NCBI GenBank assembly: GCA_949358305.1
Contig: OX442315.1
Span: 36,916,427 to 36,980,426 of the forward strand
Direction of reading: 5' to 3'
Length of the DNA: 64,000 bases
Source of the DNA: Strigamia acuminata
Taxonomy: Eukaryota > Arthropoda > Chilopoda > Geophilomorpha > Linotaeniidae
Of the stretch, positions 19,123 through 61,900 are shown in pieces. The notes under the pieces are model-generated. The model saw only the letters and a list, made by a program, of their open reading frames with translations, made no database searches and was not told where the DNA came from. Numbering within the stretch: the first letter of the stretch is position 1; each line of letters begins with the position of its first letter. The translations under genes and the position numbers were made by a program.

Positions 19123-21375
19123 TCCTAAAATTCTGTAAAAATTTTCAAATTTTCAAATTTTTACCTACATTTAAAATTTTTTTTTGGCTCAGGACCCCTC
19201 CTTGGCTTTGGCCTCTCGCCCTGTGGGGTACTCCACTGCTACTGTGCCCAACATTGATTATTTTCACCATTACCATCAGGGTGTCGCTATTGCTATTGCT
19301 AAACAGTGAATACACCAAACAAATTTGGTGGGGTTGAGGATATCAATGGATATCAAATTGTGGAGGATTTGGGTTCAACTCCTAGCGACACCTTTGGGGT
19401 CCGGGCGGGTATGCAGCAAAAGATGGAAGGGCCTGTTCAAATATTTTAAAATTCATATATTACATTTTTTTTAGTAACAAATTCTCAAATTTAAGTTAAA
19501 TAATAATTGTAAGTGTTCAATAAAAATGTCTAAAATTTTACAACGAATAAAGTTTAAGGGGTGGATAGGGATCTGTTGGAAATGTATGCAGGGGGGAACC
19601 CATTGATTAGTTGTTAAGCCACTGGGTAAACAAAACACAGATTAGCGTGATTGTGCCACCGGCTGTTGAAACACAAAATGGCTGTCTCGTAAACGTGTGA
19701 AAACACGGATCACTTTCGGTTTTTGATGAAACTCAAGCGGAAGTTCTAACAAATTACAGTTTAGAAAATTTACCGATGTCAAATAATACAAAATAATATG
19801 ACAATGACATTCAACAGTGTTACACCAAATTCTTACATTCCTACTTGTAAATCTAATACAATATTTGACAACTCAAGCACCACATTATACAGTCTGCACC
19901 CTGAAATTTGATGCCAATTTTAAACTGCATATTCCTTGCAAAGCATTGTGTACACACGAGAGCTTAAATTGCTCGTTGTTTTCCTGAAGAAAAAAATGTG
20001 TGCACAGAACGGAATGTGCATTTTGTCAGGATGGTAAAAAATAAAAACCAAAACATCTATTTGCTCACGTTCGGGAGGATCAATTGTTGCAAACACACAA
20101 TTAAGTCTTTTCCGACGTGAATTTTGATGCGTCTAGAACTTGTAAAAAAATCGTTAAGACGTGAGTAAAATTAGAAAAAAGTAGAATTGAGTTGACCATT
20201 TGGCTGAAAACGAAGGAATTTTAATTGCCATTTACTCGCAAATCCCAAAAGCAAAACCATAAACGGACACAAAAAGGAAATAATTGCACAAACATCGTTC
20301 TGCGTTTTTGTCTTCAACCTTACGAACACAAACTTTGAAAATAAAAAATAAAAAATAAAAAATAGCACAAATTGTGGTCTAAATAATTTGAGGCACAGTT
20401 ACGTCTCTTGTGCAATGTTTTGGAAACGCAAGAGTCTCTGGCAAGGGAGTTGAGGGTCGTCAACGAGGGTCGTGGAGGAACGGGCGGAACAAATCGTCGC
20501 TTATTGCCATATTTCACGCTCGTATGGATCCTTTGGTTGAGGGTCTCCACCCTCCACTTCTCCCCGGTCTCTGAAAAGTTCCCCTCGGACCTCGCTCTAA
20601 CGACGCGGCCAAACAAAGCCACTTGTTTACCGCTCCGTCGTAACGAGGTCCGTGTTGTTTTTAGCGGGAAACAATGGCATATACTTCCATCTTGGAATGT
20701 CGGCTTGGCGTGCAACTGAAGAAGCTGTTTGTGTCTTGTCATTTTTGATTTGTTACGTCACGTGTTCCCAGGAAGATTTTCGTCTTTTAAAGAATTTCCA
20801 TTTTTGTTGTTTATTTTGTCAGAAATAATAATATAGGCCTACATATATTTTTATTGTTGTTATTAATACACTTCGGGATTTGTTCCGTGGTTAGTTTTAA
20901 GTGACGCGGTGCAGTGTAAATGATTTGGAAGAGGCAGAAGATGAGTTGGCCATCTGCGCTAATCGCCCCCTAGTGGGAGATTGTGGAGTTCAACGAGGCA
21001 AGAGTTAACATTGGTTGCATTGGCGCCCTCGTCTGCGCATGACAGCTGAACAAAAGCGCGACCTCTGGCGGAGACCTTCCCCCCTCTCCTCACCTTTTAC
21101 TGGCAACCTCTGCAAATTACACTCCCCTCTCGATAAATTAATTTCAGATTTAGTTGACTAATTTCAACTCGTTTCAGCTTCAATCTATTTCTCTTTTTTT
21201 CCTCAACATTTATCTTTTCAAATTCGAAACAATACTCACAAGTTTTGCATCGAAATAGTGAAATTAGAAATAGTGCAACCAACCCAGTGCTTTTTCCTCA
21301 TTTACGTTAAACAACCAAAATTCAAATTTGCAATTTGCGGTTTGCAGCAATCATTTACTCAAATACTGTCTGAGC
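19123..21375. other. Intergenic stretch, no gene recognised
   Basis: The stretch is AT-rich with a GC-richer island at about 20,440-20,720. That island carries overlapping open frames on both strands (20,408-20,719 plus; 20,320-20,742 minus) without recognisable domains. A tRNA-like inverted structure (19,280-19,392) and a CTCF-like motif (20,964-20,976) are listed under findings. Confidence 0.5.
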
Positions 21376-31601: not shown

Positions 31602-34600
31602 GTAAGTTTATCAAACAAGAAATGGTATTCTAGCATAGTTGTTGAACGAGATTTAACGTGCGAATCTTGTGTTAAATATACAAATAGCACGACTTTTGGA
31701 GGGTCGTCTCACGACCGTGCTACGAGTTTCATCGTGTTATTAGCGGGTGATTTTTTTGGACACAAGAATCTAGTGTTAATACATCTCGTTCTCGTAGCAC
31801 CAGTTACATTCAAAAACGCCATCTCATGAGAATACGTAGTGCTAATTCAATAGTGAAAAAAAATATCGTATGTTCTATTTGTTGGTGCTGCAATCTAGTA
31901 TTGGGTTCCATCAGTTTCAAATCACCAGCTTTGTTTTATCTGTGGAGAATTACTAAATTAGTGTTTTCAATACTAATGGTCACGTTACGTAATGTGAGAA
32001 CGGGGAGGGAAGGGGATTGGAGCACTATACTTTATGTAAGAACCTTATCCTATATGCTGGAACGAATCCTTTTTTTTAAATTTTATTTTATTTTTGTATC
32101 TTGTAACATTTTGCACATGAAAAGAACTTTCTGCACATTTAAATGAGTTTTTGCACATTTACATGAGTTTTTGCACATTTAAATGACTTTTTGCACATAA
32201 AAATGACTTTTTGAATACAAGAAGTACATTTATGAGTCTAAAACTTTACTTTCGGCGGTATATTACTCTTCATCTCCACGTTAAATTAAAATCTCATTAA
32301 CCCACATTTAATGCTCGCAATAAATCAATTTAAAACAATCTTGTCTGGAATCCATAAATGATATTCAATTGATCATTCTATCAATCCAAATTCCAAAGTG
32401 CACGTACAATAATTTTTAAAGGTACTTTAACCAGTTATATAAAACAAATTATCACGAACAACAACAGGAAATGAGATTAAAATAGTTCTGCGGACCTTTT
32501 TTCCCGTTAAAAACCGAGAAATTGATTACGCTTTATTTGCGTGATGACATACCGCCGTCGAGCATTTGCTCGGCCAATGCTGATCGCTGCTCAGCCGTAT
32601 CCAGCGAAACTACGAAACAGAAAGAGACAATCGATAATTATAGCTCGAAAAAAAAGTACGCACAAACAAAGTACAGAGCGACGCCCAACTATGCAACGAG
32701 TGAATTTAGTTTGATTTGAGAATGGGAATCGGGTGGCGGCCGTGGTGTCGTCGCGATGATCCGGTGACAACACCTGAAGATGCCTGGGCTGAGCAGAGAG
32801 GCACAACAGGGACTTATCGTTCCTCTAGGCCTCGTCGTGACTCTAAGCCTCGTCGTGACTCGAAGCCTCGTCGCCGGTCGACTCAACCCGGGTTGCCGCA
32901 TTTATTCATGTCATCGATATCGGGCTCGTTGGGGCTAAGCAGGGATGGAACACCTGTGAAAAGGCCAAGTTTGATTGGGAAAACTTATGTAAGTTTGTTG
33001 AAAAAATGAGTAAAATATGTTTGTTGACCCGATTAAGTCGTGATAGTGACCCGAATGTGTTGGTAATGAATTTTTAAGTGGTTTACCATACCATAATCGA
33101 TTGTAATGTAGCACGCTTTGGCTGTAGGGATTATTGATAATTTCGTGCTAGGCAGGAAAGAAAGTTTTGCTTTTGGAAGGAACGCACCAGGATAAGCTGT
33201 CGATCAGTTCAGTTTTGATTCAGCTTTGGTTTCAGTTTTAGTTTGACAAAGCGCCAACCGAATTAATTCGGATCGGTTTGTTTGACAAAAATTCAAAACG
33301 AATAAATTGTACATTTTGGTTTAATTTAATCATGAATAACGACTTGTATTACTAAATAATAGCAACATTCAGGCAAAAAAACTTGTTAAAATAGGTGCAA
33401 GTCTTAGGAGCAGCAAGTTTAGGTGGCAGTTCCTCAATATTGAGAAGTAATAAAGTGAAAATGTTACTCATGTTTTTATGGTCATTTGATGGCTACTGAG
33501 AAGCCAAGTGGAAACAATCATTAGTGAATGGTGAGCAATTGGAATTGTTAGAGAATACAGGGATATTATTGTAATTATAAACCAGATACAGCTGGTTTAG
33601 TTCAGTTGAAAACCGACTGCTTTCCTGTTGTCCAAATTGTTATTAATAATGGAATTTTACTGAATTTCGGAGGTTTACACTAGACATATAATCAATTTAT
33701 TAATTTTTCTTTTTTTTTTCTAATCACCTACCGGTATTCCCATTAGAACGCAGAAGTTCGACAGTATTGGGCATAGAGTAAAGATGGGTCTGATTAATAT
33801 GGAATAGGGACCTGCTGGGAATCCCAGTTGTTTTTCCATTTCTGTCTAATTTGTGTACTGTTCTACTGTTCCCAGTGGCGGACAGGGGACATCCTAATCT
33901 TGTATTACATTTCTACTTCATCGTGAGCAAGCTATGCCCAGTTCTTTGTGGTATGTGCCATTGTTTGGCGCCCAAGCAAAAATGAAAGAAAAGAGCCATT
34001 TGTGGCAGCAGACGTTGATTAGTTGATTAGTGATTAAAGATTACGCCCAGTAAACATACATTTAATCTATAGTAAGGACTTAAAGACTTCTGTAAATATT
34101 TGACTACTTTTTCTTACATTATGCATCTATTGTTCATTGGAGGTTTGGAAGTGAACTGTATAAATATGCGAGACATGCAATAAGTGGAGGCAAATATTGA
34201 CCAAGTTGATTATGCAACATTGTTTACGGTAGATGCGGAAACGCAACAACTTTGCATGTATCGTGTGAATTAAAGTTTTTATGGCTGAAAAATCAACAGG
34301 TTTCCTTAGAAACTCTGAACTATGAATTACAGTTAGCAGTAGTAATACCATGACGGGTGTGCTGAGAATCGATAACCGACGGGGAACTTTGCTCGTTTCA
34401 TTCGCTTTTGATGATGAAAGGGAGGAAACGTATCGAGTGTTTCCTATACTATATAATTACTAATTAATTAAGTTAATTGTTGATGGATGAGCAAAATTTG
34501 GTTTTTTTTTCTTTTCATTTAACAAAGTAGTGAAATTCATTAAGTTTTTGAGGTCAGAGATAGAGGAAATTCAATAAATTGAATTCTGTTTCGAAGGAAT

Positions 34601-37600
34601 TCTTTGTTTTTTGTTTCTCTTAACAGCGCTGCATTTTTTTATGTACAAAATGTAAAACCTTTTACGTTTGTACATTGGTTTTATTTTATTGATATTAATT
34701 TTGTGCCAGTGCTGCACAGGCACGGATGCCATTGCACCGTGGGGTTTCCTAATCACTATAATGTGCCCCTGATGATAGATAAACCAGAAACTAACTATTG
34801 GGTCATTATTGGATGTTCAGGTTATTGATTTGGATGTGGGGTCATTAGCACTTGGCGTTTGATGGGTTTTGGTTTTGTTTTTTGGTTTTTTTTTAATCAA
34901 TAAAAAGTTGGTTATTTTTTGATACTTAAAAAGTTTGAAGTTTGAATTTTTTTATTTTTTCGTCAATTGTAATGTTTTTGTTTTTGTTTTGTTTCAGCCT
35001 GCTGATAATGTTAGTGTGGTTGAAATCAATGAACTCCACAACACGTCATCAATCGATAATTTGTCAATTCTCAGTCACTCGCAACTCCCACAAGGACGGA
35101 TTTTTTTCACGAATGAAATTGATGATGATGTGAGTTAAAATATAATATATTCAAAAAACAAAGTGAAATGAGGGGACAGTTTTGAAAGGAAATGAAATAT
35201 GAAATGAAATTTAAACGCTGTTCAAATAACTGACGTCAATGTAGCGGAGCACGCTTATGACGTCATACAAACTCAAATTGGCCAAAGTGATGGCGGTCGA
35301 TTTCAAACCGAATTGCTAAAGTTGCTGTTTGATCGTTTGCCTCGTTAAAAAGCAGAAAAGCGAAAGGAAAGAGGAAGTAAATTGTTCCGGTTAACGTTTA
35401 TTGCAATTGGAATCAATTTTTGTTGGAGTATTCCCGAAATGCTTTGCACTATGTTGGTAAAATGGTGGACAAAATGTGATAAAAATTGATTTTCTATCAT
35501 TAAATCATTTATTTTTATTGTTTCAATCGTGTAGTGTATGTTCGATGCTTTTATTAGGGAGGCCGGCCGTATTGTCGTGTTTCAAATGAGACCTCAATGG
35601 ACGAAATCGGACAAATTATGGGGCACGACTGGAAATTATCTCTTCCAACTATAGTTATGGTAGTTATAAGCAGTCTTAAAGAAAATACAAATAGCAATTG
35701 GAAAAACCATAAGCAGTGGACTAACTTACAAAATGGAATCATTGAGGTATGTATTTTATTTTATTTTATTCCATTCAGTTTTAGTTTTCATATTATTCGA
35801 GTAATTTGCTTACTAGGCGGCTAATACAACTAATATGTGGATTGTGACTCACGCTGCTGACACTGGGATTCCCAAGATGATCGGTGATATAGTGCACAAG
35901 GAGAAGGAGAGGCGGCAAGCGATGAAATGTTTCAGGCATCCAAAACAAACCGGAACTTTGTTTCCTGATTTATATTTGCTGGGAATCATCAGAAGTAGTT
36001 TGATTAACTACAATTACCTCTTGGAGGACACAGTAAAGGCATCATTTCTATTTACCATTAAAATTATTAATTTTTTTTTAAAAAAATTTTATAGACTAAA
36101 ATAGAAGTACGTAACAGGGGAGAATGTGAGGATGGTAAATGCGAACTGAATCCCGACCACTCCCATTTTGTTATCATCGACGACCCGTCCAATGACACCG
36201 CCATCGCTACGGATTTTTTGGTTAATTTGGAGAAGTATATTTTGCAGAGCAATGATCTACCGGATTTTGGAAGTAAACATTTTTATTCAAAAAATTTACA
36301 ACAAAAAAAAGATTTTTAACCTTTTCTATTTCTGTTTTTGTCAGGTGAACCTGAAATTCCAAACGGAAAAACATCTACAAAGATGGAGAACCCGATAAAC
36401 GATAACTTAACGATCGGTGCCAGTGAGATACCGGTGATTGCCTTGGTGATTGGTGGGGGTTACAAATCCACATTGATGGTCTTGGAGCAATTAAAAAGTG
36501 AAATTCCGGTGGTTGTTATCAAAGGAAGTGAAGGAGCTGCTAATTTACTCGCATTCGCTTACGAGGAAATTAAAGAAAAGTGATTACAATGTTCGATGTA
36601 ACGCAGAAATTTTTATTTAAAAGTTTTGTTTGATTTGTTTAGGTCTAGGGGTGATTGGGATCCAGATTATGTTGAAAATTTCATAAAATCTGAACTGTCG
36701 AAGAAAATTGCGAGCAGTTTTCCAAGATACAGGGAGAATAATTTAGCCAGAAACAAATTCAGGGATAGCATTTTGGAATGTATAAGACATTCTCACAAGG
36801 TGAATTGATCGTTAATTTGTTAGTTTCTGCAAGAAATTTTTTCGGAAGATGATTTTTGTTTCATTTTTTTTAGGAAGACCGGCATTTTCTTACTTTTCTC
36901 GATATTTATAGTTATAAGATTAATTTAGCCGAGTTAAATCAACATCTTTTAAGGGCTTTATTTAAAGGTATTTCTTTTTTATTTTAATTGAATTTTGATG
37001 TAATTTTTTAAGAGATTTTTATTTTTTTTTGTTTTTTTTTTTTTTGTTTTAGCCACTCCGAGAACTACGGAGGACTATGCGAAACGCGAAAAACATCTTC
37101 ACAAAGACATCTACCTTACTCTGGATTGGAATAGTCCTCATATTGCATTGTCAGAAATATTTCAGAAAAAACACCTTAAATACAAGGTAAATTAAATAAC
37201 TCTTATGCGTTGTAAGGAGTTGCAAAATTACGATACTACATTGAAAAAGGTTTTTTGAAAGTGTTTGTGTTTTTAGTTTGTGTTTATTTTGTTGTTTGGT
37301 ATTTCCTGTTTTGCGTTTTGAGGAAGTGAAATGACAAAATGAAAAATCAAACACTTAAAACGTGACATTTTTGAATGCAGCTAGACTGTATTACCGTATT
37401 TTCATCTTTATTATTAATTATTATTATTATTTGCAGGTGGACAGTAAAATATTTATATCAGCTTTGCTTCGAGCCAATCGTGAATCATTTATCTCCCTTT
37501 TTTTAGACCAAGGTTTTCAAATTCATAGATATCTAACAGAAAAGAGATTCCGCAAATTATTTTTAAAGGCAGAAAGTCCGGAATTTTTTCGGACTGTGTG

Positions 37601-40600
37601 TATGGAAGGAATGCTCGGATACAGTTTTGTATGTTCACGCATTGAAGATATTCAATGAATCTTATTCAATTCATTTCTTTTCTTTTCTTTTATAGTCTGG
37701 AAAGTTGGGGAAAGAATTTATTTCAAACGATTTTAACTGGATAATTAAGCACTTGACAAAACTACGCAACTTTGTCGATGTTACGGCGTTAAACGTGTCC
37801 AATCCATCCGGTATGCTCAGCCTCGTCGAACAAAGAGTTGCGGAAAGAAACGTAGGAATAATAAATAAAATATTGAAAAAGTAGTAATAAAAATGGATTG
37901 ATTTTAGGTTCAAACGTTATTGGCCTTATGGGCTGTTCTCATGAACAGGCCGAAACTAGCGAAACTGTTTTGGGAAAGATCGGATTACCCGGTTCATTTA
38001 TCGCTTGTTATCGGTCTGATGTACTCGAAATTAGTACCGTACGTGAGGGAAACGCATTTGATTCACGAAATGGAGGAACGGAGCAAGTAAGATGATGACA
38101 ATTTATTTATTTATTTTTTTTAATTTTTGAAAATTTAATTATTAATTTTTATATTTTAAATAGGGAATTTGCAGACATGGCCGTTTGCATTTTGGACATG
38201 AGCTTTTTGCAAAATAATTGTCGCGCGTTTGATATTTTAAGCGAACAAGTGTCCGATTGGAACTTCAAAACGGCCGTTGAAATCGCTGCCGATGCACGCA
38301 ACAGGGCGTTCATTGCTCATCCCTGCTGCCAGAAATGGCTGACCAATTTGTTTTTCGGAGACATTCGGATCCGGGAGTTGAAGTGGGGAACGGTCACTTT
38401 ACCCGTTTGGATTAAAGTGGTTTTGTCGGCATTTCTTATATTTCCTATGTACATTTGGGTGCATTTTAAGACGGGACAGAAACGCTCGATTATGGGAATT
38501 TTTGATGATGGAGGTGAGAAAATTATTTTACAAATCAAATTGAATTACCGGTATGTAATTGTTTTGTTTATTTCCTAACTTAGACTCCGAAGAAGGTTCC
38601 GATGGAGATTCGGATGCGGAATCCATCAGCCAGCCGGCCCTTTCGCGAATGTGTAGTCGAGAGGCGCGCCAGTCGATAGTTGTCAATTACACGTAAGGAT
38701 TTTTATCATTTTTATCGCAATTTTACTCCGCACTTTAATACAGACTATACCGCTTAAACTGTTTATTCTTTTCGCTTTTTAAATGCAGGCCAAAGGAAAC
38801 TAACGTTGAGTAAGTCATTTATTCTATTTCTCTTTTATTTATTCCTATTTGAAACTTTTGCACATTGTAAAGCAACTTTTTCTTTTGTTATATTCACAAG
38901 ATTAGTCGAAGTTAGCCCACAGTAAGAACACGCGAGCTGTTGTAAAAAATGGCAATTTTCTTTTTTCTTTTTTCTTTATTCTTTTATATTTTTATTGCAT
39001 TTTGCATGCTTACAATTTAGATTTTTATTTATCGCACATTTTGCATGCCAGATATTTTATTTCTGTGTTATTAATTATTCTTCTTATTTTTTAGGCCATT
39101 TAACATCGATAACATTGATCCAACGTCCATAAGCAAAGGAAAAACTGCGACACCTTGGGATTGGAACGTGTTGCGAACACCTGTCAGGTTCCTACAGTAT
39201 TTCCAACCGAGACCGCAGCCGCCATTATGGAAGAAAATTTACATCATGTGGAATGCACCCGTTACAAAATTTTGGACGTACCAAGTCAGTCGGGTTTATT
39301 AAATTTTAAAAAAGAAATTGCGTCATAGAAACAGAAAAATGAAATTAATTTGTTGAAATTTGAAATTTGGCAGATCTTTTATATCATGTATTTGACGCTG
39401 TTCAGCCTGGCCGTGTTGCAGCCCGGTTGTGGCGATGTAATGCTCGACTCCGCAGTTTGGATCTGGACGGCTTTGATATTAATGGAAAACGTTCGGAAGG
39501 CTTACATTCAATACAGAGTACTTAGAATAATTCAGAGTGTCCTGTGGTAGTGATTATATATATTTTTGTATTTTTTTTTCTAGGATTACAGTAGTGTTCC
39601 TCTGTTAGCGAGTTTGATTGAAATAGTTCTGTTGTTTTTATTTTTGCTGCTGTATATGACAGTGAGAATTTTACCAAATACCAATTTGGAAGTACTTTTT
39701 CACATTCCTATTAGTTCGTATTCAGCGCGAGTTGTTTTGTGCATCGGTTTACTCTACGTTTATTATCGTTTTATTTGGATTTATTTGCCTATTAGCCCAA
39801 CTCTTGGCCCGTTACTTTTTAGGATTAAATTAATGGTAACTTTTGATAAGTGATTTCTTTACCTTTATATTTAATGCTTTTATATTTAAAGGTTACTGTC
39901 GACTTCGTTCATTTTTTACGACTCACACTCTTGTTTATAATCAGTGGAGGAATAGTGATTCATTCGGTTATTTATCCTAATTATCCTATGGATAATGAGC
40001 TTTTAAGACGAGTCTTCCACAGAGCTTGGTTCACTTTATTTATAACGCCTTTTACCGATGAATTAGAAGGTAATGTAATAGCAAATTTTGGCTTAGCGCC
40101 TATTTACATTAAATTAAATTGGTAGCTTAGACCAAACAGTGACATTTTAGACCAATGTTACGTCGATTATTGGCCTATAAGCTAAAAGCGTCGATTTTTC
40201 GGCTAGAAACATTGATTTTTGGGCTAAAGACGTTGATTTTTTGGCTTTAATTATCAATTTTCGGCTAAAAACGTTGATTTTTGGATAGTTTCTTAAACAA
40301 AAGCCAAACGTACGCTAAAGGATTAAGTAAATGGGAGACCTCACCTGAGGTGGAATTAGCCTACAGTCTATTTCCGCCTCATATAGGCTTGCAAAAAAAT
40401 GAGTTTTGTCTTATAAATAGATTTTTTCCATACTGTCTACATGTTGAAATGAGTTTTAATTTATATTTCAATTTGCAGGCCACCTGGATAGATGTAACAA
40501 ATCTGAAACAGTTTTTTTATCAAGCAAATATGACACTTGTACAGCCTTGACCGAGAACCGTAAGTTTTTAAGGAAACCATACCGTAATCAATAAAATTCT

Positions 40601-43600
40601 GCCGTATTTCCATGCATACAAAACTCGCACCTCAAAACATACCAGATAATGAAAAAATAATTATTTATATGATTTAAATGTGTGAAAATATGGTAGTTAT
40701 AAAAAAAAAAGATTAATAAATTCTAATTAACTGAATGCTGCTAGACCGATGGCAGCGTCCTGACACGATGAAAGACGGTAAGTTATTTTTCCAATTCTAA
40801 ATTGGGCAATATTGAGCATTGGAGATCCGAACTCAACCCTTTACAATTTAATTTTACATTTTTTTGATGTTGCTTCTTTTTTTTACACACTGCAGGCTAT
40901 AATCACACTTTTGCAGACACCTGTCCTAGGGGTGGTTTTTGGTCATACGTGATGGTTATTTTATATTTGGTTAATATCAAACTGATACTGCTTACATTGC
41001 TTTATGCTTTATTCAGGTAATTCACGCACTAACCGTACACTTCAGCGATTAAAAGCCGCATTCTAATTACTCTAAAGTGTGAAATTCCTGCAAATTATTG
41101 TAAATACGTGTTTTTAGTGTCGCGGCTTTTAGTCGGTGATAGATATACGGTACTTGAGGTCTGCATGGATTGATCTTGCTAGATATTTATTTCTCTGTAT
41201 TTTCTCTTTAAGTCTTAACGTTATCCCTTATCGTTATTGCGGTCTCCTTTGTCTCCTATCTGTTTTTAGTGCAAGTTTTTTTTTCTCTCGCATGTTTTGT
41301 ATTTCATTTACACCCTTTTTGCAGACTTTGATTATACTTGTCCCCGTACGGGGTTTGTACCCTACCTCATGGTCATCCAATATCTAATCATTTTGAAGTT
41401 GATCCTTGTTACCTTGCTAACTGCTCTGTACAGGTAAGAATCTCCTCTTTACACTGTGACTAACCTGTGCAATGTTTTACAGTTCCAAAATAAAAAAAAT
41501 AGGTACGTTAATTAACACTGGTTTTATAGTTTTCAATTTATAGATTGTCTGTAATTTCGGTTTGTTGTCGGACCCAGGTGAAATGTGATCTTAAAGCCTC
41601 TAAAAACTTCTACCGTTCGTAGCAGACGAAACCTTTATCCACTATCACATCCAGAGCCGGACTTGGTGTTGCGGGGCCCTTAAGCAAAAACTTTATGCCC
41701 CCCCCCCCCCTTCCATAAATGCATATGCGTCATCTTTTCGTGGGAAATGCAGATTCTTTTCGGGAATGTGGATTCTTCTCCGGCGGCCTGGGGCCCCATT
41801 GGGTGGGATGTCTTAAGCAACTGTTTATTTTGCTTTTACGTAAGTCCGGCCTTGATCACATCATAGAATACGATAGCATCATGATGCCAAATTCTAACAT
41901 TAAATTTCATTTTATGCACACGAAAACACGAAAGTTTACAATTGTTGTATACGACCTGTTATTATTTCTAAAAATCATATATTTGTTCTCTTCAGTTTAG
42001 CTGTTTTAAGTTATTATTATTTCATTATTTGCCGGTCTATTTTTTAATACTGTTGTTAGGGCAAGGTAAGAGACTGGGTCAAGATTGATGTCATTCAAAC
42101 TCAATGGATTTTTATGCTACCTGGTAGATAAAATTACAAAAGCTAAACTGAAGGGAAGTTTTTTTTGTCCACGACTGTACAATCTGTACGTGTGCGCAAA
42201 CAGGGACTTTTCCGTTTGATTTGGAATCAAGATACTGAAGGCAGGCTACATGAGCTGTTTAGGTTTTGGTTGTGCCAAAAATATGGCATTGCAAGATTAG
42301 GAGGCTCCTGAGCCAAAGAAAAGAATTATTAGGATTTATTGTAGGGGGTGCCACAACAAGTTTTAGTAGGATGAGCAGGACAAATGGATAGTGCGAATAA
42401 AATGTGTATATTCATTGACGGGTAGTGGCACTTCTGTTAATGACATTACATTGTAAAACAAAGAAATGAGTTCAATGTTTCGTGTGTTAATTATGGTCTG
42501 GCCTTGATGGCAATTGGAGACTAGGGTGTGATTAGGAAAAGTCGGCTACTGAAGTCCTTTGGTGGAACCAAATAGCAAACGGTTGTTGATAAACTACAAA
42601 TGCAGTTATGCAGTAGCGTGAAACACAAGCTAACAGTAGCTGCATTCAAAAACTAAAGTATTTTGTGTTTTACTTCAATTTTAAAACAAAAATAAAATCA
42701 TTTATTGTTTAAACCCATGTTAAAAGTTAACATACACTTAAACTAAAGTTGTTATTTTTATTTTTGAATGCAGCTAGTGTATTTTAATTGGTCTAACTTA
42801 AGCATAAAATTGAATAAATTTGAGAATAGACTTATTGCTGGTGAGAGAAGGTGAAATTTTGCATGTAAATATCATTTGTACAAAAAGATACCACACCTAT
42901 CGACGACTAGGTCAGTAATCCAGTAGAATGACATTTGGCTGCCATTCACAGCAGAGTTTACAGTTGATTGCTAATAGACAATGTCATAGTTCTAAACATC
43001 TTTATGGCTGCAAACAGTGGCTAGAATTTTATTTTAGATGCTTAATTAGTTTTAGGTCTAATAATAATAATAATAATAATTATAATAATAATAATAATAT
43101 TTAGGTATAATAACACATTACAATTTTATACGATAGTAATACTGCCCAAAGAGACGTTCGGGACACAGATGCAATTTGGAAATTTCAACGATACCATTTA
43201 GTTTTGGATTTCAATACCCGTTACCGCTTACCTGCACCCCTCAACGCCATCAGCTTTTTGCTTTCCATCGTTGAAAGGGTTTGCGCAGTATTCATGTGCC
43301 GGTACTGCCGAAAAGCGCGCGAAGTGGGTCACGAGGAGAAACAAAGACTGCTGAAACTAAAACAAAACGATCACAATTATTGGAGAGGACTTGCAGCTGA
43401 GTACAGTAGGCAAGAAAAAGTGAAAGAGGAGGAGAAAAATCTGCCAGCGAAACAAATGGAAAGGTAAATGAATATTCGTTACGATTGTGTGTTTACGCAA
43501 TAATTGTCCTTTTTCTTTTTCTTCTTTTTTTAGTGTGAGGACGTTGATGCAGGACATAGAGCATCACAGTTGGATGTTGAGGCAGATGCAAGTACGATTC

Positions 43601-45094
43601 ACTGAATTGGAGAAGATAATGTTGAATAGTAAAGTTTCACTCGAAGAGATTAAGCATGAATTGGGTGGAGAGGATGCTCGCATATTGGAGACGACCATCC
43701 ATCTCTTCTCGCGCCAGTCTCCGTATCCGGGAACGAGAGTCAAACGTTTTCCTTTGGCTGACAGATATGTGCCGTGGGAAGTTCAATTTAGCATCTATGA
43801 TCCTGTCGTCTATTCTAAACCGAGGACTGATTTCCAATCGTTTGAACGAGACTGTGTTGATGAAGACCAGTTGCAGTAAGTATTCATCATATATATTTTT
43901 CCAATAAACTATCGAGCATATGTTTCTCTTTTTCTTCTTTTCTCTTTTCTTTTGCTTGAGTGAAAATAAGGAATTTTAATTGCCGTTTACTCGTTAAACC
44001 CAACAACTAAACATATAAACAAACTTTGTTGTAATAAGTAATTTGTGGTTTGCAGGCAGCGAAGTGACAAAAGTAAATACCAGGCCCCTAATCTACAGTG
44101 GAATTTTGCATACACCAGCGGTGCTGGGATAACAACTGACAGAAGAACATGGATTACTACACCGAACGGCGACCCGCTCGTGTATAAACTGGACAGTTCC
44201 GGTTTACCAATGTATAATAGATATAAAAAAAAAATAAGAAATAAAAATGTGCTTTTTCTAATTTTGAAAATGTTACTAGGAATCCTCTGGGTCGAACGGG
44301 TCTGCGCGGTCGTGGAAGTCTTCACAGATGGGGACCTAACCACTCAATTTATTTAGTCGTTACGAAGTGGCGCTCCGTTGACGGCTTTTTGCAATCAGTT
44401 ATTGCGGCAGAAGATCACAGAGAAGTGGAGTTTCTTAGCGTGGCTAATCCTGTAGCTCCAAATTTATTAACTCTGCCCGGCGTATGTATTTAATTTAATT
44501 TCCTACTTCAGGTAATAACTAAAAAGAAAACAATTTTAGGGATTTATTATGAATTTCGATACACTCTACGAAGTAGTCCAGAACCAACTTCTTCCTGGAA
44601 TTAAGAATAGGGGGAAATGGAATGCGGAGTCGATGCAAGAGGTGGAGTGAAAGAATTGAAAGAAACAAAAAATGTTTTCAAGTTTGATCTTATGAATATT
44701 TCTTGCGCTAGTATTTTGCTCAATATGCCCGAGCTCCTGCTGGAGATTTTGTAGACATCGTCGGTGAAGATGCCGAACAAGTCAATTTTATATCGACAAT
44801 GCTGATGAAGGGTTACATGGACGATAATCAAAATACGGACAACGCTTGGGTGGAGGCGGAAGTGTGGCACTTTCATTATACGGCCAGTTTGGTAGAAGAC
44901 ATTGTTGTTCCTGTATGTATAATAACTCGTTAGAAATTACTGCCCGCTTTTGGAAATCGGATTTATTATTTGTTTGATTATTTCAGCAACAATTCCGGTG
45001 GAAAAAGATCACGTCCAATACAAGCGCCAAGTTAAAGCCGAGCCATGCGGCCATCATTTACGAGGTTCAACAACGGTTGGAAAATCTTACTTAA
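31467..45094 (+). CDS. TRPM-family cation channel with C-terminal NUDT9-like domain (TRPM2-type), whole gene
   Basis: About 30 coding exons with GT-AG borders fit one continuous frame of roughly 1,655 residues. Coding exons: 31467-31601, 34999-35130, 35558-35746, 35817-36032, 36095-36272, 36345-36579, 36643-36799, 36874-36967, 37053-37186, 37437-37628, 37696-37851, 37908-38086, 38164-38513, 38584-38692, 38789-38809, 38901-38921, 39095-39284, 39374-39517, 39584-39835, 39892-40069, 40479-40559, 40745-40777, then 40896-41016 or 41325-41433, then 43105-43463, 43534-43875, 44056-44211, 44280-44481, 44540-44641, 44712-44912 and 44987-45094. The order is TRPM homology region, six-helix channel, TRP helix, coiled coil, NUDT9-H. 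By family knowledge it is a plasma-membrane cation channel probably gated by ADP-ribose and calcium. The first exon is the least certain (ATG at 31467 after an acceptor at 31448). A one-base gap interrupts exon 43105-43463. Confidence 0.93.
32109..32213. repeat. ~22-bp tandem repeat (TTTTTGCACATTTAAATGAG type), five units
   Basis: Five slightly varying copies lie in the first large TRPM intron. Confidence 0.85.
32722..32985 (+). CDS. Possible alternative first exon of the TRPM gene
   Basis: An open frame from ATG 32722 ends at ACTTAT followed by the donor GTAAGT at 32986, in phase 0. It could therefore splice to 34999 in frame. It is GC-richer than its surroundings and contains three 18-bp repeats (CCTCGTCGTGACTCTAAG, about 32,830-32,880) encoding a basic Arg/Ser/Lys stretch. 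The last residues ([19 protein letters not shown]) look coding-like. No homology is recognised, and an alternative as non-coding DNA is open. Confidence 0.3.
34999..38513 (+). CDS. TRPM exons 2-13: N-terminal TRPM homology region (SLOG-like nucleotide-binding part and helical repeats)
   Basis: These twelve exons encode about residues 46-782. The first half matches the SLOG-in-TRPM module: [16 protein letters not shown], then [18 protein letters not shown], then HSHFVIIDD, then [14 protein letters not shown] and [18 protein letters not shown]. In TRPM2 channels this module can bind ADP-ribose. The glycine-rich GGTNTG of typical TRPMs reads HAADTG here. The second half (RRVFHRA is later) is the ankyrin-like helical region with [34 protein letters not shown] and the pre-S1 hydrophobic segment [18 protein letters not shown]. 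Introns are short (about 60-110 bp, with one of 428 bp and one of 250 bp). All junctions keep phase. Confidence 0.92.
35231..35265. promoter_or_regulatory. Two perfect CRE palindromes (TGACGTCA)
   Basis: TGACGTCA occurs at 35231-35238 and 35258-35265, with starts 27 bp apart, inside the 427-bp TRPM intron between 35130 and 35558. CREB/ATF binding is a possibility only. Confidence 0.3.
38789..38809 (+). CDS. TRPM microexon 1 (21 nt)
   Basis: It lies between acceptor TGCAG and donor GTAAGT, in phase 2 on both sides, and adds seven residues (around PKETNV). It sits in the cytosolic linker after the acidic exon 38584-38692 ([12 protein letters not shown]) and before S1. It can be skipped without changing frame. 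Confidence 0.8.
38901..38921 (+). CDS. TRPM microexon 2 (21 nt)
   Basis: It lies between acceptor ACAAG and donor GTAAGA, in phase 2 on both sides, and adds seven residues (around LVEVSP). It has the same length and phase as the preceding microexon, so either or both can be dropped. Support is splice signals plus frame only, and the acceptor lacks a good pyrimidine tract. Confidence 0.65.
39095..40777 (+). CDS. TRPM exons for S1 to the pore loop
   Basis: Six exons encode residues of about 833-1126. S1 is [16 protein letters not shown]2-S3 include [20 protein letters not shown]3-S4 include [19 protein letters not shown]5 is [16 protein letters not shown]. The pore helix follows in [20 protein letters not shown]. 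At the position of the usual TRPM filter FGQ the sequence reads FITP. The pore-to-S6 loop carries paired cysteines (DRCNKSE, YDTCTAL) as in TRPM2 relatives. The last exon (40745-40777) is only 33 nt. Confidence 0.88.
40160..40286. repeat. ~25-bp degenerate tandem repeat in a TRPM intron
   Basis: About five copies of a unit like GGCTAAAAACGTTGATTTTT lie in the intron between exons 39892-40069 and 40479-40559. Confidence 0.75.
40896..41016 (+). CDS. TRPM alternative S6 exon A
   Basis: Acceptor TGCAG, donor GTAATT; enters in phase 1 and leaves in phase 2 (121 nt). It encodes [14 protein letters not shown] followed by the S6 helix ending [14 protein letters not shown]. It is interchangeable with 41325-41433, which has the same phases. 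Using both or neither would break the frame. Confidence 0.88.
41325..41433 (+). CDS. TRPM alternative S6 exon B
   Basis: Acceptor TGCAG after a pyrimidine tract, donor GTAAGA; phase 1 in, phase 2 out (109 nt). It encodes [10 protein letters not shown] followed by an S6 helix ending [14 protein letters not shown]. Over the shared core, 21 of 33 residues equal exon A (hand alignment). It is four residues shorter before the TCPR motif. Confidence 0.88.
41652..41854. mobile_element. hAT-type MITE (203 bp) with perfect 8-bp target duplication, in a TRPM intron
   Basis: The ends CAGAGCCGGACTT and (inverted) CAAGGCCGGACTT are flanked by ATCACATC on both sides (41,644-41,651 and 41,855-41,862). A run of C (about 41,698-41,710) and mirrored GGGGCC/CTTAAGCAA blocks lie inside. 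There is no coding capacity. Confidence 0.85.
43059..43100. repeat. (TAA)n microsatellite at a TRPM splice acceptor
   Basis: About 13 TAA units run up to four bases before the acceptor AG at 43,103-43,104 and take the place of a normal pyrimidine tract. Confidence 0.9.
43105..43463 (+). CDS. TRPM exon after S6 (TRP helix), with apparent one-base frameshift
   Basis: After S6 the frame gives YNNTLQF, as expected for the TRPM motif FNNT. It then runs into a stop unless one base is added in the T run at 43,124-43,127. The second frame gives [15 protein letters not shown] (TRP helix) and [19 protein letters not shown], then basic and Lys/Glu-rich sequence to the donor at 43,464. With one extra base all later exons are in phase. 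It may be an assembly error or a real mutation. Confidence 0.8.
43534..45094 (+). CDS. TRPM C-terminal exons: coiled coil and NUDT9-like (ADP-ribose) domain
   Basis: Six exons encode the last ~370 residues. A coiled coil comes first (around [14 protein letters not shown]). The NUDT9-homology domain follows: [36 protein letters not shown] and [20 protein letters not shown] are close to human NUDT9 and TRPM2. The Nudix box (pattern G-x5-E-x7-R-E-U-x-E-E-x-G-U) should begin at LPGGF but reads [20 protein letters not shown]. The catalytic R-E and E-E residues are absent, so ADP-ribose hydrolysis is unlikely and a sensing role more likely. The stop TAA is at 45,092-45,094. Confidence 0.9.
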
Positions 45095-48861: not shown

Positions 48862-49707
48862 AGGTTGCAAAGTTTAAATTTACCGAATTTAATAGAAAGT
48901 GAAAATTGAGATAAATAAAGATTATAACATTTTGAAACGAATTATATATTTCTACTTTTGCGAAGTAGGAAAATGTCTTTAAAAACGTTGGAATTCGTAA
49001 GAAATCTAACATTAAAGGGAATGTTATGTTGTGTTATAAAACACTCCAATAATTGAAAGAATTTATTTTCTAAATTTTCACGGAAGGTCTGTAAAACAAT
49101 TTCGATGTTGGTTGAATATTTTCGAAAGAATTATCCAATCAATAACGGGATTGACCAGGCCAAAGTGCGGACGTGGTAGAAAACTACTGTAAGTAAAGGA
49201 TTAGTCTCCATTTTATCATTGGATAAAATGACTCTCCACCAATAAAATATCGAGGGATTAAAGGATTATCGATCCTCGATGCCACGCGGATCCAGACTGC
49301 AGAGGACCATTCGTATCCAGACCAGACCCGCGTACACGTGTTCCAGTAGCCATCTTGACCACGCCGTCCCGTTTAGTCCCGATTCGAAATTTCCACGCCG
49401 TAGACCAGCAAAGTTAAGTGTATTCCATTTACTATTCTAATAATAGTTTAAAGCGTATTTCTTTCCAAACGCTAGTTTACCTGTAGAAGATTTCGTTTGA
49501 TTTTATTCTAGTTTGATAATAGTTTAACGCGTATTAAACCACGCGAAGTTTAATTTTCTTTTGTTTAAAGTTTGTCGATAGTTTAACACGTTAAACCACC
49601 ACGTGGAGTTTAAACTTAACCTTATCGAAGTGTATTGTTATTTTGAAGTGTATTTTTTATAAAGTGTGTTATCGTTCTTTAGTAATAAAGAATTTAAAAC
49701 TTTTATC
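48862..49707 (+). other. Untranslated leader of the retrotransposon
   Basis: 846 bases without a long frame. Three loose copies of a motif like ATAGTTTAACGCGTATTAAACC lie at 49,440-49,610. This is the expected place for an RNA packaging signal. Confidence 0.5.
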
Positions 49708-51291
49708 ATGTCTGACGAAAACATTCATATGAATGAACGAGAAGTTGATGACGGAAACTTGGAAAATAGTTACGTCCGACTCGAAGACCAAACGGATTTA
49801 ATTCCGGACGATTTGACAGAGTATTGTCAACTCTATAATATAAATCGGGCTGATTTCAAAACAATAACCGAAGCGGTTAATCATGTACGCGTACTTGAGA
49901 AAAGAAATCAGAGAATTAGACCCGATGAAGATGAAAATTCGGAGAACGAAAGTCGGCATTCGCGGACTTCACACCGAACCCCACGAAAAACGATTCCCAC
50001 GAATCGTAAGCTGGACTTTCCCTCTCCTAAAAAGAGGTTGGGATATCAAGCCCGGATAGTGTCGACTCCACAGCCAAACGACAGAATGGTACGCGAACCA
50101 TCGTTTAGTCGATCTCGTAGTCAACAAAGTTCTGGACAAAGAACACCCAGTTCTAATAGTCCTTTAAATCTAGCCAAACCAAGGTCTAGATCGACTAGTG
50201 TTAATCGAATGATTAACAATAGTAATTCGGGTTTTATCCCCCAAACTTCAGGGAATAGACAAAATATCTCCCAAAACTCGGGACATAGACAGTATGTTAC
50301 TCCAACATCTGGAAATAGACATTATGTCCCCCCGACACCGGGGAAAGGACAGTTTGTCCCCCCAACGCAGTCAAAAAGAGTGTCAAATCGAACTCCAAGG
50401 AGATCCGATCCGATCTCACCGTCCCCCGTTATTCAAAATTTACCGGCGGGAAAGACTCGTTCAAATCAGACACCCCCAGAACGTGTACAAAATAAAAGTA
50501 GTGTTCCACATGGACAACATGTACCATCTGGCAATCATACACAGCATGAGAATTATGTTCCTCCAAGGAAAGAAATCCCCCAGGACAATCAGGTCCCTAA
50601 GGGAAATCTGCCCAATTTTGAACAAAATTCTGGTTCGGCATCCTCCGATGGTAGTTCATCTCAAGCGAGATTTTCTACCGACGACTTGGGAACCATCCTT
50701 ACCTATGTGCGAAATATTCAAACTGATTGTGCACATCAAGTACAACAATTTATGCAGAATAATGCACAGCAAAATAATAATGCAAACAATTCGAGCAAAA
50801 CCTTTTTCAAAGGTCAGGATATGCCTGTTTTCGATGGGAAACAGAAAGAAGTGGCTAAATTTCTAGCCACAGCCAAAACAGTCGCTGTCGCTAAAGGTTT
50901 AACCCTGGATGAGATGGTAAAACGCGGAATACCAACTTATTTATCTGGTATAGCCCACGAATGGCATACCGATAACATCGACAAATTTGTTGACTGGAAA
51001 ACTTTCGAAAAGTTATTTTTGGCGGAGTTTGACATGATCCCTGTCACTCGAGCCCGAAAGCTTCGAAATTTAATCCAGGGCCCAGAAGAGCCACTTTATA
51101 CATTTCTTTTGAGATTTAAACAAGCTCAAGGATCTTATTCAAAAAGAGATGAAGCCCCCACTCTTCTCGAGAATTTGAACTTAGTTAGTTACAATCGAAT
51201 AATCGATAGAGGTCTTTATGAAGAATCATTTAATGACATATTTCAATTTGTCCGGCAGAATAGGGCTCTTTTCGAAGCCCAAAAATGCTAG
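49708..51291 (+). CDS. Gag (matrix-like disordered region plus capsid) of the gag-only retrotransposon
   Basis: From ATG 49708 (ATCATGTCTG) to TAG at 51289-51291, 527 residues. The N-terminal ~345 residues are polar and disordered, rich in Ser, Asn, Pro and Arg. Near residues 171-214 there are four 10-residue repeats (SGHRQYVTPT, SGNRHYVPPT and relatives). From about residue 360 a capsid-like domain begins (MPVFDGKQKEVAKFL, IAHEWHTDNIDKFVDWKTFE, FLLRFKQAQGSY), with the W and F spacing of Ty3-type Gag. The frame stops at a TAG directly after an A5 run. The zinc knuckle continues in the +1 frame from about 51,287. Gag would form the particle that packages the element's RNA. Confidence 0.88.
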   Translation: MSDENIHMNEREVDDGNLENSYVRLEDQTDLIPDDLTEYCQLYNINRADFKTITEAVNHVRVLEKRNQRIRPDEDENSENESRHSRTSHRTPRKTIPTNRKLDFPSPKKRLGYQARIVSTPQPNDRMVREPSFSRSRSQQSSGQRTPSSNSPLNLAKPRSRSTSVNRMINNSNSGFIPQTSGNRQNISQNSGHRQYVTPTSGNRHYVPPTPGKGQFVPPTQSKRVSNRTPRRSDPISPSPVIQNLPAGKTRSNQTPPERVQNKSSVPHGQHVPSGNHTQHENYVPPRKEIPQDNQVPKGNLPNFEQNSGSASSDGSSSQARFSTDDLGTILTYVRNIQTDCAHQVQQFMQNNAQQNNNANNSSKTFFKGQDMPVFDGKQKEVAKFLATAKTVAVAKGLTLDEMVKRGIPTYLSGIAHEWHTDNIDKFVDWKTFEKLFLAEFDMIPVTRARKLRNLIQGPEEPLYTFLLRFKQAQGSYSKRDEAPTLLENLNLVSYNRIIDRGLYEESFNDIFQFVRQNRALFEAQKC

Positions 51292-51748
51292 TGTAGACAC
51301 TATTGCCAATAAAGAGGACGAAACTGCCCCGTCAAATACTCAAAAAGGTAAAGACGCCAGGAGTTCGCGCCCACTCATACGATCTACTCAGACGTTGAAC
51401 GCCGAACCAGAAGTTGTACCTATGGAATCTGACGAGACAGACAATCTTGAAAACGATGTTGGATTCAACAACATGGTATGTGCCCTATCGGAGAAAGCAA
51501 CTGGAAAATGTTTCCATTGCAATCAACCAGGACACTTTAAGAGGGAATGTCCTTTGTTACAAAAAAGGAAATTTGCTCAGGACAAACCTCAAGGTAATGG
51601 TAATAATACCAATACCAATCCCGCCTCTGATCTTTTTAAACGACAGAGACAAAATTGGGTAACAGCTGAATCTTTGGATCAAAAACTCGAAAATTTGAAT
51701 TGGGGAAATGCTGCAACAAATGAAGGTATTTACGGAATTGTGATCTAA
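51287..51748 (+). CDS. Nucleocapsid part of Gag (CCHC zinc knuckle) in the +1 frame
   Basis: The open frame (extending back to 51,218) overlaps the end of the capsid frame. It carries a classical zinc knuckle CFHCNQPGHFKREC (C-x2-C-x4-H-x4-C) at about 51,510-51,551, followed by a Lys/Asn-rich tail and a stop at 51,746-51,748. It has no separate strong start. It probably reaches expression by a +1 frameshift near 51,280-51,287, or the two frames were one before a single-base change in the A run. No protease follows. Confidence 0.8.
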   Translation, partial: ASVDTIANKEDETAPSNTQKGKDARSSRPLIRSTQTLNAEPEVVPMESDETDNLENDVGFNNMVCALSEKATGKCFHCNQPGHFKRECPLLQKRKFAQDKPQGNGNNTNTNPASDLFKRQRQNWVTAESLDQKLENLNWGNAATNEGIYGIVI

Positions 51749-58900: not shown

Positions 58901-61900
58901 ACTATGAGAACTTCACTGCTTTTTGATCACCAAAAGGAAACAACAAAATTAGATGGCCACGTTGAGGAAGTCGAGACAACATTACAAGATATGTGTGTTT
59001 CCCAGACAATCACTCTACATACACCAACATTTTTTAGAAGTCTTGTAATCAAAATGAGACGGTTGGAAGAAGCACAACTTCTCAGTGTTTACAACCACAT
59101 TAATAGGATATGTCCAGGAAATGAAATTCTTGCAAAGTAATTCGCCATTCTCTCTTTGTAGGCTTAAGTTAAGAGTAAAAAAAACAACTTCTTTTGAACT
59201 TTTGTAGAAAGTTCTTCTTGGATGCCTTACACATGACAGTCACACCAGCATCTGCTGCTTTGATAATTCGATTAATTCAAAGTGATCACATCAGCAATGA
59301 AATGAAGGACTCCTGGCTTCTCACTTCAGCTTTTATACCATCTCCAACAAAAGAATTTGTTATGAAATTTGCAGTAAGTTTATATTTTTTTGTGATTGAC
59401 CATTGTATATTGATTATAAACTTAATTCTGTACAGGTACTTCTTGACGACAAAAAACCTAGAAAAAATACACTTTTGGGTCTTTCTGCACTGATTGACAC
59501 ATACTGCCACCAACCTTCCGTAGAATGTTCAAAAGACGAGGACTTACAAACGTTTTCTCAGAAGTTTGCCAATTATCTGAAAACCGGTTGCCAAGGTGAA
59601 AAGAATACTACAGAAAAGGTAAATGGAATGGTTTTACCCAAGTGTTTCTCAAACTGTGGGGCGCGAGCGGATTTTTGGTGGGGCACAATGGTGTTCAATC
59701 ACTTTGTCGCCCACAATTTTCGTCCTCAGATTTTTTTTTTCAATTTTTGCCAATTCCAATTCCAACTTACTGCCTGTAATTGATTGCAATACACTGCAGG
59801 CTAGCAAAAGCTACAAAATCCTTTAAAATCTTCACAAAAACCTCACAAATATCACTCAAAATCTATAAAAGCCATCCAAAATTCTCCAAAAACCAGTCAA
59901 AAATCCCAAAAATGGAGGTTTGTAGCTATTGTAATTTCCCAAAGTGATGAGTTTTGTAGGCTGGGAAAATAGTAACAATCTATTTCGTAGTTCATTTTGA
60001 AAAAATTTAATGCACCGATGACGAAGTGGGTCTTAAAAATGGGTCGCAATGCCAAAAAGTATGAGAACCCCTCGTGTACCACACGCTTATTGACCATTTT
60101 TCAATTATATTTATCTGGATTTTAGCCTCACATTTAGTGGCAATATGGTAACTAAAAAATAATGTTGATCACGCTACAATTTGGTTTTTGTTTTAGATAT
60201 TAATTGCTTTGAAGGCAATTGGAAATGTAGGATTTCTAACAAAAGCTGAAGAGAAGCTGAAGAGTTGCTACGTCAATTCCAAATCTGATGTTGCTGTTCG
60301 AGTGGCTGCAATTGATGCACTGCGTCGCTGGCCTTGCGATACACAGGTTTTACCACTCATTACGCTCGACTAGATGTATTACTTAGAGTTTATTTTCTAG
60401 CACAAGTCGTTAATCAGAATTCTAAACGACTATGAAGAAGATGTCGAAGTAAGACTGGCTTCCTACTTATCGCTAATGCGCTGTCCTTCTCGAGAAACGC
60501 TCGAATCAGTCCGCCGAATGTTGGAAACCGAACAAATCAATCAAGGTTAATAAAAAAAAATAATTTATCGTATTAATTCAAGTTTACAACTCCATTTTTA
60601 TCATCAACAGTCGGATCTTTCATCTGGACGCATCTTCTCAATCTCCAAAAAACAAACATGCCCTACAAAAGCCAAACTAAATCCATCGTTCAAAGTTTCG
60701 TTTTACGACAAAAATTCTCCACCGACGCACTCAAGTTCTCACGTGCTTACGAAAAGTCCTTCCATTCAGAAGCCTATCAGAGCGGACTGCACGGACAAGC
60801 AAATCTGGTGTTCACGCCCAAGTCGTACCTCCCTCGATCTCTAACGACGAATTTAACGGTCGAGCTTTTCGGTCGTGCCATCAATTTAATCGAAATTGGG
60901 GGTCGCATGGAAGGCTTTGAAGAGTGGATCGAATCATTTTTTGGCCCGAATGGATATTTTCCAGAAAGGACAGTTCAAGATGCATTGAAAACGATGCGAG
61001 GTCAAAGAGACGTCGACGATAAGCACATGGAAGAATTACACGATCAGTTTAAAGCTCAATCCGAATTCCCAGACCCTCGCGCCTCAACGTACATTCGAAT
61101 ATTTGGTAACGATATTTTTTTCCGTCAATACCAAGGCCAGAAAAACCTCGAGCACATCTTGTCCCGGCTGATGAAAGACGAGGAAACATCAATCACCGAA
61201 AGCTTCACATTTGTCGACACATCGCTCATAATCCCGACGCAAATTGGACTGCCCCTGAACCTCACCCTGAACGGCACGGCAATTATTCAACTGTTGATGA
61301 AAGGACACACGCACATTCGACAAATATTCAATCTGGATTGCGACGTCAATGGCTACATCAAACCCAGTGCTGCCATTCAAATAACAGGCTCAATGGGAGT
61401 CAGCACGCCGCATTTAACGTTAGGAGTGCAACTCGACGCCACATTGCACACATCGACTGCAATTTCGGGCAAACTTGTGTTAAAGGGTGGGCGCCTGGCT
61501 AACGTACAAATCGATGCTCCTGAAGACAGAGTGGACGTCATCAACATCAATAGTCAGCTCTACGTTATTGAAGGCGACGACGCGCCACGAGCGACACCGG
61601 AGTTTTCGGTTTCGAGAGTCGATTTTGAAGGTTGCTCCGGAACATTGACTCGAACTGTTTTTGGTCTTGATATTTGTGCTGCAATTTCCTACCCAAACGC
61701 TTCCGAGATGACAACCGCACCGGGGTTTCCATTGACTGGTCCTGCTTTGTTTTCGATTTACGTTGAAAAATCAGATCCGCTATTGACATCGTACAACTTC
61801 GAATATCAGTGGGAAGATAATAAGGTAGTTTAAAGTTTGAGTTTTCTCCAGACCGGGCATAAGCGGGTCTGGCATTACAAGTGCCCGGTCATCAGGGAAA

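What the first reader, a model, noticed from the sequence alone, without database searches (positions are those of the whole stretch)
40896..41433. Two phase-matched alternative S6 exons in a TRPM channel gene
Seen: exons A (40896-41016) and B (41325-41433) each have acceptor and donor sites, both enter in phase 1 and leave in phase 2, and encode related versions of the same segment (TCPR motif plus S6; 21 of 33 core residues equal). Because 121 and 109 both equal 1 modulo 3, using both or neither breaks the frame, so only one-at-a-time use works. Known: S6 lines the pore and gate of TRP channels. Inference: the animal makes two channels with different gates from one gene by mutually exclusive splicing. 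I know of no TRPM with a duplicated S6 exon.
Basis: partly seen in the sequence, partly recalled or inferred. Interest (0 to 1): 0.8.

Follow-up and report, generated by a model that had tools for sequence, protein, structure and literature searches.

The report
Swappable pore-gate exons in centipede channel
A centipede ion-channel gene carries two neighbouring, interchangeable versions of the segment that forms the inner gate of the pore, so one gene can probably make two channels with different gates; switching exons this way is known in other channels, but I found no report of it for this segment in this channel family.

Summary
Exons A (40896-41016) and B (41325-41433) are homologous, share phases and have usable splice sites. 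Either alone keeps the frame; both or neither gives an early stop. They encode the post-filter loop plus S6. The true downstream acceptor is 43137, not 43105, as the Strigamia ortholog P0001 and intron-free P0124 show.

The genome is from a centipede near Strigamia (81% to P0001; inference). By nearest relatives the gene is ced-11/TRPS-type, not TRPM2.

Both exons look selected: pS 0.90 against pN 0.22. Of 12 exon-encoded strongly conserved family columns, each keeps 11. Exon B is 36/36 identical in P0001.

At the position matching human TRPM2 gate residue I1045, A has Tyr (73 of 80 unique relatives: Tyr or Phe) and B has Thr (0 of 80, but in P0001 and P0124).

One-at-a-time splicing is the best explanation. 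Against: no RNA was available; exon A's peptide is in 0 of 125 proteins held; Pfam's Ion_trans model does not hit the protein. The kind of event is known (CaV1.2 exons 8/8a); I found no printed TRP-family S6 case in open-access searches.

The parts
40896..41016 (+). Alternative S6 exon A (121 nt; a weak second in-frame acceptor at 40917 gives 100 nt). Peptide ...TCPRGGFWSYVMVILYLVNIKLILLTLLYALF-S; family-type gate LLYALF
41325..41433 (+). Alternative S6 exon B (109 nt). Peptide DFDYTCPRTGFVPYLMVIQYLIILKLILVTLLTALY-S; gate LLTALY
   Evidence: 36/36 identical in Strigamia P0001; LLTALY in 2 of 125 proteins, P0001 and P0124
41017..41324 (+). 308-nt intron between A and B, too long for simple steric exclusion
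   Evidence: the <50 bp criterion is from a passage of PMC5740500
41032..41151 (+). Predicted hairpin just after the exon A donor (z = -3.05, 1 of 200 shuffles as good; stretch chosen after seeing the inverted repeat; whole intron z = -2.89); role unknown
40745..40777 (+). Possible 33-nt in-frame cassette exon upstream; strong donor, very weak acceptor; absent from the Strigamia gene model
40479..40559 (+). Exon for the extracellular loop after the filter; joins A or B (or the 33-nt exon)
   Evidence: 27/27 identical in P0001
39892..40069 (+). Exon for S5 and the filter region
   Evidence: 60/60 identical in P0001
43137..43463 (+). Common downstream exon after A or B (TRP-helix region); acceptor 43137, not 43105
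32722..45094 (+). Whole TRPS/ced-11-like gene, start codon to stop, read from the sequence against P0001; several 5' exon borders approximate

Best explanation
A and B are an old tandem duplication of one exon in a centipede TRPS (ced-11-like, melastatin-related) channel gene, and they are spliced in one at a time. Each transcript takes either A or B between the S5/filter exons and exon 43137-43463, because taking both or neither breaks the frame. The two proteins share everything except the post-filter loop and S6. Exon A gives an S6 ending LLYALF, the usual form in the relatives. Exon B gives LLTALY, with Thr at the position of the human TRPM2 lower-gate residue I1045 and Tyr for the near-invariant Phe three residues on. 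Swapping exons should therefore change how easily, and perhaps for what, the pore opens. Shown: homology, phases, frame logic, coding constraint, and exon B's conservation in the Strigamia gene model. Inferred: that P0124 comes from spliced RNA of a related centipede, that exon A is transcribed, that the choice is regulated, that the protein conducts ions, and that gating differs.
For: Phase and frame tests. pS 0.90 against pN 0.22 between A and B; identity by codon position 20/27/14 of 33. Under a neutral model 82% of copies carry a stop and 0 of 20000 reach 22/33. Of 13 family columns conserved at 85% or more, A keeps 12 and B keeps 12; one of the 13 lies in the shared next exon, so 11 of 12 each within the exons (90 rows, 80 unique). 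Donors 7.9 and 8.5, acceptors 7.8 and 5.5, inside the range of 20 donors (1.5-9.4) and 19 acceptors (5.2-16.8) of the same gene, B's acceptor near the low end. Exon B peptide identical in the Strigamia gene model, with the junction to 43137. P0124, which begins inside exon B, has the same gate and junction. Membrane region matches solved TRPM1, TRPM3 and TRPM2 channels (best E 5e-22). Gate position: alignment, human numbering, gate residue from passages of PMC8145809 and PMC6602575.
Against: No RNA data. Exon A's peptide words are in 0 of 125 proteins held (120 of 136 hits were listed, plus 5), and a third search with an exon-A query scored none of 6 candidates. The Strigamia model uses B only. 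Among 15 pairs of intron stretches, no pairing clearly beats shuffles (best z = -1.93, 2 of 60 shuffles as good). The A-B intron is long enough for A-B splicing. The S6 tree does not group A with B, so the age and site of the duplication are open. The shared acceptor 43137 scores only 0.0. Pfam's Ion_trans model does not hit the window protein piece or P0001, and NCBIfam's trp model matches P0001 only far below its cut-off (44.6 of 498.75 bits), so conduction is not assured.
Confidence: 0.7

Rival explanations
1. Exon A is a recently silenced duplicate: functional for most of its history, now little or not spliced, with B as the only working S6.
For: Only B is seen in relatives. A simulation with a short neutral spell (0.3 draws per site) matches the data in 407 of 4000 runs.
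Against: No stop, good splice sites, 11 of 12 exon-encoded conserved family columns kept. Longer neutral spells match in 8 of 4000 (0.5), 0 of 4000 (0.8) and 0 of 4000 (1.2) runs.
Confidence: 0.13
2. Both exons are used, but not as a regulated exclusive pair: A is a minor or stage-specific choice, and double inclusion or skipping acts as an off-switch through premature stops.
For: Both and neither give early stops; the A-B intron is long enough for A-B splicing; no clear pairing device found.
Against: Both copies are constrained as protein and differ at the gate, which suggests two useful proteins rather than an off-switch.
Confidence: 0.12
3. The similarity reflects chance or a gene-reading error, not a duplicated exon.
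For: None found.
Against: tblastn E = 6e-10; saturated synonymous with few nonsynonymous changes; B matched exactly by P0001.
Confidence: 0.01

Closest known systems
CaV1.2 (CACNA1C) mutually exclusive exons 8/8a
   Same: Mutually exclusive exon pair encoding an S6 segment; changes channel properties (passages of PMC3596553)
   Different: Four-domain voltage-gated channel (recalled), so only one of four S6 helices changes. Here the channel is presumably a tetramer of like subunits, so all gate-lining S6 helices could change
Insect TrpA1 mutually exclusive exon10a/10b
   Same: TRP channel with a mutually exclusive exon pair that changes function (passages of PMC11471635)
   Different: That pair encodes a region between the ankyrin repeats and the membrane segments, not S6
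TRPM3 alpha1/alpha2 pore-loop splicing
   Same: Melastatin-family channel whose pore and ion selectivity are altered by splicing (passages of PMC7959729)
   Different: A 12-residue difference in the pore loop, not described there as a duplicated exon and not S6
TRPS / ced-11 (soromelastatin) channels
   Same: Nearest named relatives of the window protein; melastatin and NUDT9-H layout (passages of PMC13143021)
   Different: No duplicated S6 exon is mentioned in the passages I saw

Membership tests
Mutually exclusive tandem-duplicated exons | Adjacent homologous exons with compatible phases and splice sites | tested here: met
Mutually exclusive tandem-duplicated exons | Joint inclusion or joint skipping disrupts the reading frame (common though not universal) | tested here: met
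Mutually exclusive tandem-duplicated exons | Both copies under coding constraint | tested here: met
   a short recent neutral spell of A not excluded
Mutually exclusive tandem-duplicated exons | Transcripts carry one or the other exon, not both | not testable with these tools
   No RNA held; only B-type products seen in relatives
TRPS (ced-11-like, soromelastatin) | Melastatin (SLOG) N-terminus and NUDT9-H C-terminus | tested here: met
   PF18139 (SLOG in TRPM) and PF25508 in ortholog P0001. The NUDT9-H part rests on alignment with TRPM2-type proteins; one search reported no Nudix family there
TRPS (ced-11-like, soromelastatin) | Groups with TRPS and outside TRPM alpha/beta/gamma in a phylogeny | not tested
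   Best named hits are ced-11 and TRPM2-like proteins of myriapods and chelicerates; no TRPM alpha or gamma set was at hand for a rooted tree
TRPM2 (TRPM beta) | Filter sequence FGQ and S6 Asn residues (NILLLNLLIAMF) as in human TRPM2 (P0102) | tested here: not met
   Window has FITPFTDEL, and K and T where human TRPM2 has N
Ion_trans channel domain (PF00520) | Match to the Pfam model | tested here: not met
   No match for the 605-aa window piece at E <= 0.1 or for P0001 at E <= 0.001; the S1-S6 region does match solved TRPM channels by sequence

The most novel reading that the evidence does not exclude
Centipedes evolved a splice-controlled gate swap in a melastatin-type channel. One exon keeps the aromatic lower-gate residue usual in the family; the other supplies a polar Thr gate seen here only in Strigamia and an unnamed close relative. 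One gene would then make two pore gates, possibly mixed within one tetramer.
Probability: 0.5. Interest if true: 0.72.

Novelty: new member of a known kind. Interest (0 to 1): 0.5.

Why it matters
If true, it is a natural experiment on a TRP-type gate. Two S6 helices shaped by selection sit in an otherwise identical protein and differ at the position that closes the pore in human TRPM2. It would also give a handle on what arthropod TRPS channels do.

Tried and rejected
Own-genome paralogs: the genome search with the channel protein was sent 22 times and never answered, so whether a paralog shares the exon pair is unknown. The one answered search of that genome, with Pfam PF00520 (80 matches, 150 of 168 candidates scored), did not list the window gene. 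Competing intron pairing: 15 pairs among six intron stretches (the last intron cut in three), best z = -1.93, 2 of 60 shuffles as good. Dating A and B by tree: unresolved on 33 columns; A is as similar to horseshoe-crab P0005 (22/33) as to B (22/33). My first conservation table was biased, since its search pattern required the final Phe; it was redone from the full alignment. My first frame test used 43134 by mistake and was redone with 43137. The full-length query had approximate 5' borders and lacked exon 44540-44641, found later. In some searches the exon 44056-44211 was cut short at 44201. Literature searches that could have shown a TRP/TRPM/TRPS S6 duplicate gave none in their listings; several lists were capped, and the library is open access only.

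Full report
What is there. The window lies in an animal genome of 237.5 Mb in 157 contigs. The best protein match to the gene is P0001, an uncharacterised Strigamia maritima protein, 81% identical over 97% of the searched region, so the animal is probably a centipede close to Strigamia. The gene runs on the + strand from a start codon at 32722 to a stop ending at 45094. Its region from before S1 into the NUDT9-H part translates openly through exons with AG/GT borders.

The exon pair. Exon A is 40896-41016 and exon B 41325-41433. Both begin after one base of a codon and end after two, and both are 1 modulo 3 in length. The acceptor is 43137. It scores poorly (0.0), but Strigamia P0001 reads ALYSNTAQRDVRDTDAIWKFQ and P0124 reads ALYSNTAQRAAKDTDAIWKFQ across it. 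P0001 is a gene-model protein. P0124 begins inside exon B and is 491 residues from a contig of 1775 bases, so it reads through several intron positions and looks like a cDNA product of a related centipede; that last step is inference. A weak second in-frame acceptor, 40917, exists inside exon A. The 33-base exon 40745-40777 is optional at best: strong donor, very weak acceptor, and skipped in the Strigamia model.

More than chance. tblastn of exon A against the window finds exon B at E = 6e-10. Over 33 codons, 22 residues and 61 of 99 bases agree, with identity by codon position 20, 27 and 14 of 33. About 21.8 of 24.2 synonymous sites differ, against 16.2 of 74.8 nonsynonymous sites. With the same number of base changes placed at random, 82% of copies gain a stop and none of 20000 reach 22 equal residues. 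If A alone had drifted while B stayed constrained, only a short drift (0.3 draws per site) fits, in 407 of 4000 runs; 0.5 fits in 8 of 4000, and 0.8 and 1.2 in 0 of 4000 each. So both exons were kept as coding sequence for a long time; a very recent loss of A is not excluded.

What differs. I aligned the 125 proteins held with both window isoforms. These are the 120 listed of 136 hits and the 5 hits. For conservation I used 90 rows (P0002-P0088, P0121-P0123; 80 unique) and left out P0001, P0089, P0124, P0125 and the 31 rows P0090-P0120, which are vertebrate-type TRPM2. Of 13 columns conserved at 85% or more, A keeps 12 (losing Gln to Leu) and B keeps 12 (losing Phe to Tyr). One of the 13 is encoded by the shared next exon, so within the exons it is 11 of 12 each. 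At the position aligned with human TRPM2 I1045 (numbering checked), 73 of 80 unique relatives have Tyr or Phe and none has Thr; A has Tyr and B has Thr. I1045 and Q1053 are described as the lower gate of human TRPM2 (passages of PMC8145809 and PMC6602575). The string LLTALY occurs in 2 of 125 proteins, P0001 and P0124; LLYALF in 52 of 125. Exon B is 36 of 36 identical in P0001. The two exons before it are 60/60 and 27/27, the next exon is 93/108, and the three earlier ones tested are 47/63, 45/48 and 79/84. Exon A also adds an NHT sequence, a possible glycosylation site, in the outer loop (sequence read directly; motif recalled).

How it most likely works. One exon is chosen per transcript, and the frame penalises other outcomes. 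The A-B intron of 308 bases is too long for simple steric exclusion (criterion from a passage of PMC5740500). The donors GTAATT and GTAAGA look ordinary U2-type by eye (consensus recalled). No intron pairing clearly beats shuffles in 15 pairs of stretches; the best has z = -1.93. A stable predicted hairpin lies just after the exon A donor (z = -3.05, on a stretch chosen after the inverted repeat was seen; whole intron z = -2.89); its role is a guess. [quoted passage not shown] The likely result is two proteins that differ only in the outer loop and S6. That exon A is transcribed, that the protein conducts, and that gating changes are not shown.

Results against this reading. Exon A's peptide words occur in 0 of 125 proteins held, and the exon-A query scored none of 6 candidates; that query could only find proteins of about 65-208 residues. 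The S6 tree does not place A next to B, and A is no closer to B (22/33) than to the horseshoe-crab sequence P0005 (22/33). So the duplication may be older than centipedes or the copies may have diverged fast; I cannot tell. Pfam's Ion_trans model does not hit the protein, the trp model of NCBIfam matches P0001 only far below its cut-off, and the filter is not that of TRPM2, so whether the protein conducts is open, although its membrane region matches solved TRPM channels. Own-genome paralogs could not be searched because the tool did not complete.

What it is called. By its closest named relatives (ced-11 and TRPM2-like proteins of chelicerates and myriapods) the gene belongs with TRPS, the sister family of TRPM. 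A 2026 study reports TRPS in arachnids and TRPM beta missing from the arthropods it examined (passages of PMC13143021); its main text has no hit for myriapod or centipede. I did not build a rooted tree. The filter and the S6 Asn residues of human TRPM2 are absent.

Novelty. Tandem duplicated, exclusively spliced exons are enriched in ion channels; the main text of that study has no hit for TRPM or TRPC (passages of PMC9741552; supplements not seen). An S6 pair is known in CaV1.2 exons 8/8a (passages of PMC3596553). TRP examples seen in passages are TrpA1 exon 10 (PMC11471635) and the TRPM3 pore-loop variant (PMC7959729). I found no S6 pair in a TRP, TRPM or TRPS gene in the listings, which cover open-access papers only and were partly capped. 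I therefore class it as a new member of a known kind, with an unusually pointed difference at the gate.

Noticed in passing
44280-44641 (and P0001, P0124): The NUDT9-H part shows no REXXEE Nudix box (window LPG-GFIMNFDTLYEVVQNQLL, P0124 LPGGFIMQNDSVYDVIKNQF), so this TRPS-type protein is probably not an active ADP-ribose hydrolase, unlike what is predicted for invertebrate TRPM2 (Nudix motif recalled).
   Followed up: partly
40896-41433 (S6): A lysine in S6, where human TRPM2 has Asn, is present in 79 of 80 unique relatives (the other has Arg) and in both exons. A charged residue there seems unusual.
   Followed up: partly
10221-10778 (-) and 4313-5194 (-): DM-domain and DMRTA-motif (DMA) reading frames, probably one DMRTA-type gene.
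   Followed up: no
18145-19123: Tandem array of a 21-base unit, 46.7 copies, 97% matches, open in long frames on both strands.
   Followed up: no
49663-51745 (+): Retrotransposon gag-like frame (gag match just over the cut-off) overlapped and followed by a CCHC zinc-knuckle frame.
   Followed up: no
60577-61830 (+): Vitellogenin-type large frame with Vit_open_b-sht and DUF1081 matches.
   Followed up: no
41032-41151: Strong predicted hairpin in the A-B intron, about 15 bases after the exon A donor. Whether it is a repeated element could not be checked.
   Followed up: partly
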